A DNA stretch of 64,000 nucleotides. Source: Exophiala sp. HKRS030 (lineage: Eukaryota > Ascomycota > Eurotiomycetes > Chaetothyriales > Herpotrichiellaceae). A program made the translations under genes and the position numbers. Each line of letters opens with the position of its first letter. Positions within the stretch are counted from its first letter, which is position 1. The DNA is taken from positions 1,305,665 to 1,369,664 of the forward strand of contig JAHWDD010000003.1 in NCBI GenBank assembly GCA_023897205.1, read 5' to 3'. Under the pieces are notes generated by a model. The model saw only the letters and a program-made list of their open reading frames with translations. It did not search any database and was not told the DNA's origin. Shown here piece by piece: positions 6,620-9,689 of this stretch.

Positions 6620-7393
6620 TCAACCTTCGACGGATTTCAGCCCTACATCATCAGTTGACAATTTTGCCGCGTTGAATTTTTCGCTCGTAGGTAATTCGAG
6701 GTGTATGTTGTTTATCGTCGCTATGCCCATCGTAACCTCTGCACCACTTAACTCCAAGACATGTCCGCCTAAGCTGCGATCTTTTGAGATGAAATGCATG
6801 TGTTCACCGGCCACGAAGAACCCCTGCCAAGCTTGAGGTGCCCTAAACCCGACAATCGTCCCTTCAATACTGTCATAGTTGGCGACGAATTGTGACTTTC
6901 CGAGCTCAGAAAGTGGCTGGGAATTGATCGATCAGCCATGCTCTCTATCTTCTTCCCTCCGATAGCTCGATGATTTGGTACCTACCTGACCATCATACTC
7001 TTGACCCTTGACAGTTCTGCATTTTAACTTTTTGAAGACTCCTTCTATGCGATAAGCCATGAACAGATTACTCGCATGATTGTCGAACTTTTCCAGAATC
7101 TCATCGACTGAGTCCTTAGTGTCGAAGGTCACATTGACCGTGTCCTGGGCCTTGAAATTCGTACACGCAGCGTATGGGATTTGTTCCTCATGTTCTGCAA
7201 CACGAACACTGCCCTCAGCCTGGAGTTGGTATACCTTGCCATCAAGAAGGACCAGCTCTCCTCTCATCTTCACAAATGTTCCCAGCCCGACGTTTCCTTT
7301 TTCAATCAATTGCCCTACAGCAATGCCAGAGTCTGACACGCCGCTCATGAGGGCGTTGACCAGCGAATACTGGTAGATTTCGTTGTAAGGCAT
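6620..7393 (-). CDS. alpha-acetolactate decarboxylase (two exons)
   Basis: The enzyme decarboxylates 2-acetolactate to acetoin; it is a small zinc enzyme of the bacterial BudA/AldC family. Exons are 6986-7393 and 6620-6916, joined by a GT-AG intron (gtaggt...cccag), giving 234 residues, the usual size for the family. The conserved zinc-ligand cluster is present as H175-x-H177-x10-H188 in the segment GEHMHF...GGHVLEL. The N-terminal half has the usual YRIEGVFKKLKCRTV stretch. No signal peptide or targeting sequence is seen, so a cytosolic location is likely. It is transcribed divergently from the acetolactate synthase gene across a 410 bp gap, which fits a two-step pyruvate to acetoin route. 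Start codon ATG at 7393. The family is mainly bacterial; presence in a fungus with an intron suggests old transfer, which is inference. Confidence 0.93.
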
Positions 7394-7803
7394 TTTCTCG
7401 CGATATGGTCGACTCTCGCGGTGTTTTCACCGGTTCACAACAAGAACAAGAAACTGCAATATATATGAGAAAAATAAATGGAAGAATTTTCCCAGACGCG
7501 TCTTTTCCATCTTCCGCCATTAACCGTGTGTACTGGATAGTGAGGTCATCTTCACCCAATCAACGCCGATTACATCATCCCGTCTTTCCCTCATTTCGCC
7601 TTTTTCTTCGACCTCCATATCAAGTCGCCAAAAGCAGAGAACGTATTACCCGTTGAATCGGTTTGTTTGTCATCTATATAACGGGACCAAAAGTGCATGA
7701 TCTCTCTTCAAAAATGAGACTATGATACCCTTGATTGCTTGAGCTACTGACACCTTGTTTCTCCTTTTACCTTGCTCATACAACGTCCCACCATACCGCA
7801 GCC
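7394..7803. promoter_or_regulatory. shared divergent promoter of the acetolactate decarboxylase/synthase pair
   Basis: This 410 bp gap separates the two start codons. A TATATAA lies at 7675-7681, about 125 bp upstream of the synthase ATG. A TATATATT-type box lies around 7457-7465 on the minus strand, about 65 bp upstream of the decarboxylase ATG. Open frames running through the gap lack plausible starts. The bidirectional layout suggests co-regulation of both acetoin steps; no specific regulator site was identified. Confidence 0.6.
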
Positions 7804-9689
7804 ATGGCTGAAGATACTGTCGCCCAGATCATCGTCAACAGCTTGTACAAGGCTGGCGTTCGTTATGTATTTGGTGTGCCAGGCGCCAAGATAGATGCCA
7901 TATTCGATTGCCTTCAAGACCACCCCGAGATCAAACTGATCGTTGCTCGACACGAGCAGAATGCGGCTTTCATGGCGGCAGCTGTCGGACGCATCACAGG
8001 AACGCCTGGAGTTTGTGTAGCCACGAGCGGACCTGGTGCTAGCAATTTGGCTACAGGTATGTTTGGAACCTTTCCACGCTGGCAACTAAGTGTCGAGAAC
8101 TGATCCCTCGGGGTTATAGGTCTCGTCACAGCAAATACAGAAGGCGACCCCGTGGTAGCTCTCGTGGGCAGCGTTCCTCGAGCAATGCAACTACATCGAA
8201 CTCATCAGAGCATGAAGACGCTTGACATTCTTGGCCCGACTTCCAAACTGGCCGTTTCGATCGACGTCGAGGACCAAGCCGCCGAAGTCATCCTCGACGC
8301 TTTTAGAACGGCATCTTCTTCACCCAGAGGCACCGCGGTCGTCAACATCCCAATCGACGTGTCGAAAGGTAAATCCAAGATCCTCCCTTTCCCGAGCCAC
8401 GCTTTCTTGCCTCCCAAGTATGGCATCTCTCCGACATCACGCCTCGACGAAACCATCGAAATGATCCAGAACGCAAAGCTTCCTGTGCTGTTCCTAGGAC
8501 TCCGCGCCAGCGCGCCGAGAGTCGTCGAACAAGTCCGTAAACTCTTATCTAAGTTCCCCATCCCAACCGTCGAGACGTTCCAATCTGCCGGTGCCATCTC
8601 AAAGGACCTCGTACACGTCTTTTACGGCCGTGTCGGCCTCTTCAGAAACCAGTGCGGCGACAGACTGATGGCCAAATCCGACCTCATCCTTTCCGTCGGC
8701 TACGACCCTGTCGAGTACGACGCCAGTGCCTGGAACCCCAAGGGCGACGGTCGCATCGTCCACATTGACGTGACGGCGGCAGACTATGGAGCGTCATACC
8801 GACCCATCTTAGAACTGGTTGGCTCAATTGCCGAAAACCTCGCATACATCTCTTCCCACCTTGACCGCATTTCGAAATCGTCCATCGCAGAACAGTGTCG
8901 TCCTTTCAGAGAGGAGTACCTCTCATGGCAGCAACTACCAGACGTCAAACGCTCATCCGGTCTCGTCCACCCTCTCCATTTTATCACCATTCTTCAAAAT
9001 CTCGTGTCGAAAGACACGACCGTCTGCGTCGACGTCGGATCCGTCTACATTTACTTCATGAGGTAAGTACTGTTGAAACAATGGACCGTCCAAACCTCAC
9101 TCAAACCCCAAACTCCAATGTCCAAACCCACACAACGCCGCACGGCACCTTGGCTTTATACGTTTGGAAAAGTTTTACTCACTGCTCACTGTCTTGCCTT
9201 GTTTCTAGGTACTTTTTCGCCTACGAACCCCGCCGACTCCTCTGTTCCAACGGCCAACAGACGCTCGGCGTCGGTCTACCCTGGGCCATCGGTGCGAGTC
9301 TCGCCCAGGACCCCCCGTGTTCCGAAAAGGTCGTCTCCGTCAGCGGCGACGGAGGGTTCATGTTCTCGTCGCAGGAAATGTCGACGGCCGTGCAACAGGG
9401 TTGCAACATCACTCACTTCATCTGGAACGACGAGGCCTACAACATGGTCGAGTTCCAGGAGGTCATGAAGTACAACCGCTCGTCGGGCGTCAAGCTGGGC
9501 GGCGTCGACTTTGCCAAGTTCGCCGAGAGCTTCGGCGCCAAAGGGTTCCGTATCTCCGACTCGTCCCAGGTCGAGAGTGTCATCCAGGAAGCCCTCAACC
9601 ACAAGGGCGTGTCGTTGGTCGATGTCGCGATCGACTATTCTGGAAATATTGAACTCGCAAAGACCATTTCTCAGGATCAATGGAATTAA
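7804..9689 (+). CDS. catabolic (AlsS-type) acetolactate synthase, three exons
   Basis: A thiamine-diphosphate enzyme that condenses two pyruvates to 2-acetolactate. Exons are 7804-8056, 8120-9062 and 9209-9689 (GT-AG introns), giving 558 residues. It begins directly with the PYR domain: VFGVPGAKID near residue 23-31 and RHEQNAAFMA with catalytic Glu at about 51. The thiamine-diphosphate motif GDGGFMFS starts at about 445, followed by WNDEAYNMVEFQE. The fungal mitochondrial anabolic enzyme (Ilv2) has a long transit peptide and an RFDDR FAD-related motif; neither is visible here. The segment GYDPVEYDASAWN and the KYNRSSGVKLG region are of the bacterial catabolic type. Start chosen at 7804 for its GCCATGG context; an in-frame extension to 7735 has no ATG. 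It ends 127 bp from the convergent PTEN-like gene. Bacterial origin is inferred from this resemblance. Confidence 0.95.

What the first reader, a model, noticed from the sequence alone, without database searches (positions are those of the whole stretch)
6620..9689. Divergent acetoin gene pair of bacterial type in a fungus
An acetolactate decarboxylase and a catabolic AlsS-type acetolactate synthase without transit peptide face away from each other across 410 bp. Together they make a complete cytosolic pyruvate to acetoin path. Both carry fungal introns, and the synthase resembles bacterial catabolic enzymes more than fungal Ilv2. The arrangement suggests transfer and retention as a co-regulated two-gene unit.
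Basis: partly seen in the sequence, partly recalled or inferred. Interest (0 to 1): 0.8.

Follow-up and report, generated by a model that had tools for sequence, protein, structure and literature searches.

The report
Fungal acetoin gene pair, bacterial origin
A black yeast carries two neighbouring genes of bacterial ancestry that together should turn pyruvate into acetoin; the pair is real, but similar neighbouring genes occur in many fungi and have already been studied in another mould.

Summary
An acetolactate decarboxylase (ALDC, 6620-7393, minus, one intron) and an AlsS-type catabolic acetolactate synthase (7804-9689, plus, two introns) diverge across exactly 410 bp. Both pass curated family cut-offs. 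The synthase is 52% identical to a bacterial AlsS, 26% to the genome's own Ilv2, and shows no N-terminal presequence. The ALDC is identical to that of Exophiala oligosperma.

It is not special to this genome. Among the 120 best relatives listed for each protein, every entry naming an organism is fungal except one filed under cork oak. A consecutive ALS/ALD pair was already knocked out in Penicillium digitatum (PMC10269557). In trees each protein forms one fully supported fungal clade on a long branch beside bacteria, which fits an old bacterial gain; the donor is unresolved. Pleosporales copies of both genes fall among Chaetothyriales (one-clade Dothideomycetes rejected, p 2.4e-5 and 0.0055), so the pair may also have moved between fungi.

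Co-regulation and acetoin production were not tested. Verdict: a well-supported new member of a known kind, moderately interesting for its history.

The parts
6620..7393 (-). alpha-acetolactate decarboxylase gene (234 aa, two exons)
   Evidence: TIGR01252 over cut-off; 100% identical to Exophiala oligosperma ALDC P0122; structure; PDB relatives 5yho, 6inb, 4bt2
6917..6985 (-). ALDC intron, 69 bp, GT...AG
   Evidence: splicing gives a 234-aa frame identical to P0122
7394..7803 (.). 410-bp divergent intergenic region, candidate two-way promoter; palindromic TATATA at 7460-7465 and 7675-7680
   Evidence: TATAWA 4 against 0.72 expected, P 0.03, not corrected for six motifs tried; one CCAAT, as expected by chance; no CreA, PacC, STRE or GATA site
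7804..9689 (+). catabolic acetolactate synthase gene, AlsS type (558 aa, three exons)
   Evidence: TIGR02418 and NF006378 over cut-off; PDB acetolactate synthases 4rjj/4rji at 541 bits (that these are Bacillus subtilis AlsS is recalled); coordinates
8057..8119 (+). ALS intron 1, 63 bp
9063..9208 (+). ALS intron 2, 146 bp

Best explanation
The two genes are an old fungal acetoin module of bacterial ancestry. AlsS joins two pyruvates to 2-acetolactate in the cytosol with thiamine diphosphate; ALDC decarboxylates acetolactate to acetoin before it can leak to diacetyl or valine synthesis. Acetoin is excreted, or reduced to 2,3-butanediol by host dehydrogenases. The likely use is a neutral overflow sink for pyruvate. 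Shown here: gene structures, family membership, frequent pairing in fungi, single fungal clades. Inferred: cytosolic location, catalysis, flux and purpose. The bacterial gain either predates the split of the sampled fungal classes or was followed by transfers between fungi.
For: Both proteins score over curated cut-offs. H175, H177, H188, R126, E46 and the C-terminal E233 are invariant in 22 fungal ALDCs; the histidines and the last glutamate line up with solved ALDCs; that these form the metal and catalytic site is recalled. ALS is 52% identical to the best bacterial locus and 26% to the genome's own Ilv2; the genome keeps two Ilv2 genes, both over the biosynthetic cut-off (766.7 and 760.2 of 538.35 bits). 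Fungal clades: with all rows, 119 of 119 ALS and 120 of 120 ALDC fungal rows form one clade with no bacterial row inside (FastTree); with chosen rows, ALS 26 of 26, SH-aLRT 100, ALDC 27 of 27, 100/100. Pairing: 27 of 119 ALDC clusters share an exact contig length with an ALS cluster, against 0 to 2 in 14 shifted controls; numbered tags are consecutive in 8 of the 9 such pairs whose names carry them. Distances of the two proteins agree over 28 pairs, Mantel r 0.80, 0 of 5000 permutations as high. In P. digitatum adjacent ALS and ALD genes respond together to AfpB, and knock-outs are slightly more AfpB-tolerant.
Against: I saw no acetoin measurement for these fungi in the passages and listings read. 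P. digitatum knock-outs grew and infected normally, so the benefit is unclear. Agreement of distances would also follow from shared species history; only 13 of 28 share the nearest neighbour. For 92 of 119 ALDC clusters no link to a listed ALS was shown. The step to butanediol is open: the best hit to TIGR02415 scores 256.8, below its cut-off of 304.35. Only the best 120 of 7963 and 1330 hits were listed, so other eukaryotes are not excluded.
Confidence: 0.82

Rival explanations
1. The two genes entered fungi separately from different bacteria and became neighbours later through selection for clustering.
For: Donor is unresolved for each gene: fungal ALS groups with Pseudomonadota at SH-aLRT 91, not starred; for ALDC the best quick tree has fungi with Pseudomonadota at 86, and holding fungi with Bacillales-type or Lactobacillales rows is no worse (p-AU 0.61 and 0.64). 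Divergent order in the fungus, co-directional in 81 of 81 bacterial loci with both genes.
Against: In 71 of the 80 bacterial AlsS loci kept by the scan, ALDC lies 14-169 bp away, so one transfer of both plus one inversion needs fewer events.
Confidence: 0.3
2. ALDC's main role is to drain acetolactate and so tune valine and leucine supply, as proposed for lactococcal AldB (recalled), rather than to make acetoin.
For: Acetolactate is shared with valine synthesis; P. digitatum mutants showed no growth defect.
Against: The pair comes with its own AlsS-type synthase, and Ilv2 is separate and present twice; valine synthesis is mitochondrial in fungi (recalled).
Confidence: 0.1
3. Vertical inheritance from an early eukaryote with loss in most lineages.
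For: Each protein is one fungal clade on a long stem; other eukaryotes were not searched in full.
Against: Listed named relatives are Pezizomycotina only, outside fungi I found relatives in bacteria and the ALDC family also rings in one archaeal control; S. cerevisiae lacks ALDC (PMC10466699, passages).
Confidence: 0.05
4. Bacterial contamination or assembly artefact.
For: None found.
Against: Three introns, an 8.2-Mb contig, 100% match to the E. oligosperma protein, many fungal relatives.
Confidence: 0.01

Closest known systems
Penicillium digitatum ALS/ALD pair PDIG_14840/PDIG_14850 (PMC10269557; abstract, passages and section 10 seen)
   Same: Consecutive acetolactate synthase and decarboxylase genes in a filamentous ascomycete, studied by expression and knock-out.
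   Different: Other order (Eurotiales); the parts I saw give neither gene orientation nor a bacterial origin, and its proteins were not compared here, so homology rests on the names.
Bacterial alsS-alsD operon (Bacillota)
   Same: Same two enzymes side by side; AlsS 46-52% identical in the loci read.
   Different: Bacterial genes are co-directional with 14-169 bp between them; here divergent, 410 bp apart, with introns.
Bacterial budA-budB(-budC) operon (Pseudomonadota)
   Same: Same two enzymes; ALDC up to 39% identical.
   Different: ALDC comes first, beside a LysR regulator and in two loci a diacetyl reductase; none of these was seen among the neighbours scanned here, though short frames left of the pair were not all scanned.
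Fungal Ilv2 (acetohydroxyacid synthase)
   Same: Same enzyme superfamily and first reaction.
   Different: 26% identical; the genome's two Ilv2 proteins pass the biosynthetic model, the window's synthase does not.

Membership tests
Catabolic acetolactate synthase AlsS (TIGR02418, NF006378) | Score over curated equivalog cut-off | tested here: met
   679.3 of 551.1 and 724.5 of 510 bits
Catabolic acetolactate synthase AlsS (TIGR02418, NF006378) | Closer to AlsS than to biosynthetic synthase | tested here: met
   52% against 26% identity; groups with bacterial AlsS against Ilv2 (one distant Ilv2 row)
Catabolic acetolactate synthase AlsS (TIGR02418, NF006378) | FAD-independent, no regulatory subunit, acetolactate formed from pyruvate | not testable with these tools
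   needs an enzyme assay
Acetolactate decarboxylase (TIGR01252, PF03306) | Score over curated cut-off | tested here: met
   202.1 of 180.65 bits
Acetolactate decarboxylase (TIGR01252, PF03306) | Conserved metal histidines and C-terminal glutamate | tested here: met
   H175, H177, H188, E233 invariant in 22 fungal rows and aligned with PDB ALDCs; their roles are recalled
Biosynthetic fungal Ilv2 | Score over TIGR00118 cut-off; mitochondrial presequence | tested here: not met
   300.4 against 538.35 bits, while the own Ilv2 proteins score 766.7 and 760.2; no N-terminal extension
Bacterial als/bud operon | Two genes co-directional as one transcription unit | tested here: not met
   divergent here; same strand in 81 of 81 bacterial loci holding both
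Fungal co-regulated divergent gene pair | Shared two-way promoter with coordinated expression | not testable with these tools
   no expression data for this species; motif scan uninformative

The most novel reading that the evidence does not exclude
A whole bacterial acetoin operon was captured by an early filamentous ascomycete, turned into a divergent two-gene unit with its own promoter, and later passed on as a unit between fungal classes: Pleosporales copies of both genes nest among black yeasts (Chaetothyriales).
Probability: 0.4. Interest if true: 0.55.

Novelty: new member of a known kind. Interest (0 to 1): 0.36.

Why it matters
It suggests that acetoin formation through acetolactate decarboxylase, a step S. 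cerevisiae lacks, is an old trait of many filamentous ascomycetes. It gives a small, testable example of a two-enzyme bacterial pathway kept together in fungi and possibly traded between them. It also shows where to look for natural fungal AlsS and ALDC enzymes for acetoin or butanediol work.

Tried and rejected
ALDC search of viral contigs: one weak, partial hit (32% over 48 residues), not pursued. Genome-contig scan with the fungal ALDC alignment: 348 pattern matches, none a relative by tblastn, probably because the patterns were fungal-specific. A mixed bacterial and fungal ALDC profile listed 120 of 4209 hits, bacterial wherever an organism was named. Donor: not resolved; the Ilv2 outgroup is too distant to root the ALS tree safely. 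Recent foreign composition: not seen; GC3 is 66% (ALS, just above the others) and 53% (ALDC) against 47-64% in six other frames of the window. Promoter motifs: no clear signal. A short-chain dehydrogenase at 15.3-15.8 kb was considered as a third step; it scores far below the cut-offs of the 25 families listed (of 81) and is 5.6 kb away. Papers: the listings showed me no paper on transfer of these genes to fungi; listings only, open-licence PMC papers only. Structure prediction was not run.

Full report
What is there. The window lies on contig C3 of a 59.8-Mb, 50-contig fungal assembly. The ALDC protein is identical to that of Exophiala oligosperma (P0122; Eurotiomycetes, Chaetothyriales), so this is that black yeast or a very close relative; the species call rests on this one protein, and the best ALS match in the list is an unnamed 91% cluster, then E. 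sideris at 86%. ALDC runs 7393 to 6620 on the minus strand with one 69-bp intron; ALS runs 7804 to 9689 on the plus strand with introns of 63 and 146 bp. The start codons are 410 bp apart. ALDC occurs at one place in the genome. The TPP-enzyme search found 22 matches, among them this ALS and two Ilv2 genes.

What the proteins are. ALS passes both AlsS equivalog models and fails the biosynthetic ones; ALDC passes TIGR01252. Among solved structures ALS is nearest to an 'ancestral acetolactate synthase, catabolic' (598 bits), then to acetolactate synthases 4rjj/4rji (541) and catabolic ones such as 5d6r (489), with the mitochondrial synthase 1n0h at 167 bits. It is 52% identical to a Paenibacillus AlsS, 48% to a Bacillus one, 45% to a Klebsiella one, and 26% and 25% to the genome's own two Ilv2 proteins. 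ALDC is 39% identical to the best plasmid-borne bacterial protein, from Paraburkholderia. Three histidines, an arginine and two glutamates that I recall as the metal and catalytic site are invariant in 22 fungal relatives.

Location. The ALS frame is closed by a stop at the 24th codon upstream with no ATG between, and 22 of 22 aligned relatives begin within five alignment columns. Both Ilv2 proteins have some 40 residues before the shared core. A cytosolic synthase is the natural reading but was not tested.

How widespread. The 120 best ALS and 120 best ALDC relatives (of 7963 and 1330 hits; the rest were not listed) carry fungal names wherever an organism is named, apart from one filed under Quercus suber, probably a fungal contaminant; many carry no name. 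Looked-up lineages cover Chaetothyriales, Phaeomoniellales, Dothideomycetes and Leotiomycetes; classes of genera not looked up are recalled. Nine of these contigs are under 25 kb, the shortest 5,263 bp. In nine pairs both names carry a number; it is consecutive in eight, and the ninth (Baudoinia) uses model numbers that need not follow position. The other 92 were not shown to be linked, and some named genera (Hortaea, Lithohypha, Meristemomyces) list different contigs for the two genes, which may reflect different strains or cluster members. Orientation in these fungi could not be read.

Prior work. In Penicillium digitatum, PDIG_14840 (ALS) and PDIG_14850 (ALD) lie in a five-gene cluster, react strongly to the antifungal protein AfpB, and have been deleted singly and together; mutants grew and infected normally and showed a two-fold rise in AfpB MIC (PMC10269557: abstract, passages and section 10). 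Their expression was highest late in growth and during infection, but the two profiles differed qualitatively. So the pair as a fungal acetoin pathway is already in print. I saw no paper on a bacterial origin in the listings.

Origin. In FastTree trees of all rows (120 fungal and 112 bacterial ALDC; 119 fungal and 90 bacterial ALS, two Ilv2) the fungal rows are one clade without bacterial rows (support labels there are unreliable after re-rooting). With chosen rows and a mixture model, 26 of the 119 fungal ALS rows with 30 of 90 bacterial ones and one Ilv2 give one fungal clade (SH-aLRT 100), and 27 of 120 fungal ALDC rows with 33 of 112 bacterial ones give one fungal clade (100/100). Stems are long (1.5 and 1.9 changes per site), so the gain is old. 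Fungal ALS lies inside AlsS diversity when rooted with Ilv2, but that outgroup is very distant, and Bacillota were sampled by similarity. Donor tests were indecisive (17 fungal and 26 bacterial ALS rows; 15 fungal and 26 bacterial ALDC rows). In bacteria both genes are present in 71 of the 80 ALS loci kept by the scan and in 10 of 11 plasmid loci chosen because they matched one of the two proteins, always on one strand: 73 with ALS first (Bacillota) and 8 with ALDC first (Pseudomonadota). Capture of such an operon followed by an inversion is therefore economical but unproven.

Movement between fungi. In an ALS tree of 42 of the 119 fungal rows with 4 bacterial ones, Parastagonospora nodorum (Pleosporales) and another Pleosporales species sit beside Cladophialophora chaetospira (Chaetothyriales; support 87) in an eight-row clade otherwise of Chaetothyriales (97); holding the 16 Dothideomycetes rows together is rejected (p-AU 2.4e-5), and so is holding the 20 Chaetothyriales together (2.1e-7). 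For ALDC (29 of 120 fungal rows, 4 bacterial) only one Pleosporales sequence was in the list; holding six Dothideomycetes together is rejected (p-AU 0.0055), it falls inside the Chaetothyriales clade (100/98), and grouping it with Herpotrichiellaceae as in the ALS tree is not rejected (p-AU 0.36). In the broader ALDC tree the same row fell at the base of the fungi with weak support (88/30). The groups were named after I had seen the first tree. The root of the fungal clade differs between the two genes: in the ALS tree most Dothideomycetes and Leotiomycetes branch from within Chaetothyriales (86 to 93), in the ALDC tree Dothideomycetes come first, so old duplication and loss remain possible instead of transfer. 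No ALDC of P. nodorum was among the listed hits. The two proteins' distances correlate over 28 pairs (27 plus the window; r 0.80, 0 of 5000 permutations), although only 13 of 28 share the same nearest neighbour. A sequence pair labelled Aureobasidium melanogenum groups with Capronia in both genes; mislabelling is as likely as transfer, and I left it out of the Dothideomycetes tests.

Setting. To the right lie a phosphatase-like gene (9817-11460, minus) and a multicopper oxidase (12256-14306 in pieces, plus). Nothing ties either to the pathway. The region 9.8-14.6 kb has a diverged second copy at about C3:2.516-2.521 Mb, but no ALS or ALDC match lies in the 18.5 kb read there, and a DNA search with 5400-11500 found only that phosphatase copy, so the pair is single-copy. 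Base composition is not clearly foreign.

Mechanism. Two pyruvate to acetolactate plus CO2 by AlsS; acetolactate to acetoin plus CO2 by ALDC; then export or reduction. The first two steps follow from family membership. The third is open: the best hit to the bacterial butanediol dehydrogenase model TIGR02415 is nearly full length but below cut-off, and the zinc-type R-enzyme of yeast was not searched. The role as a neutral pyruvate overflow is inference from bacterial physiology (pathway in PMC10466699, passages only).

Verdict. The surprise falls once the relatives and the 2023 Penicillium study are seen. What remains of interest is the history: a long-kept bacterial two-enzyme module, with signs of movement between fungal classes.

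Noticed in passing
window 9817-14615, 19006-21297, 29200-36000, 42300-44350; G000:C3 about 2.51-2.95 Mb: Several stretches of the window have diverged (65-83% DNA identity) second copies on the same contig, partly colinear, partly inverted; 42-44 kb also matches C7. The genome has two Ilv2 proteins 90% identical. With 59.8 Mb against about 38 Mb recalled for E. oligosperma this hints at an old segmental or whole-genome duplication or a hybrid; one paper search (10 of 14 listed) showed nothing clearly on this for Exophiala.
   Followed up: partly
ALS relative P0008 and ALDC relative P0160: A sequence pair labelled Aureobasidium melanogenum (KCU88_g3871/3872) groups with Capronia in both trees: mislabelled assembly or transfer.
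   Followed up: partly
ALS relatives P0037 and P0061: Lachnellula cervina (Leotiomycetes) AlsS groups with Neophaeococcomyces (Chaetothyriales), SH-aLRT 81, and Phaeomoniella (Eurotiomycetes) groups with Leotiomycetes, 98: further possible transfers between classes.
   Followed up: no
window 48745-52770: A 1341-aa open frame with HET, NPHP3_N (NACHT-like) and ankyrin repeat matches, the layout of fungal self/non-self recognition proteins (recalled).
   Followed up: no
ALDC relative P0210: A fungal-type ALDC is filed under Quercus suber, likely a fungal contaminant of the oak assembly.
   Followed up: no
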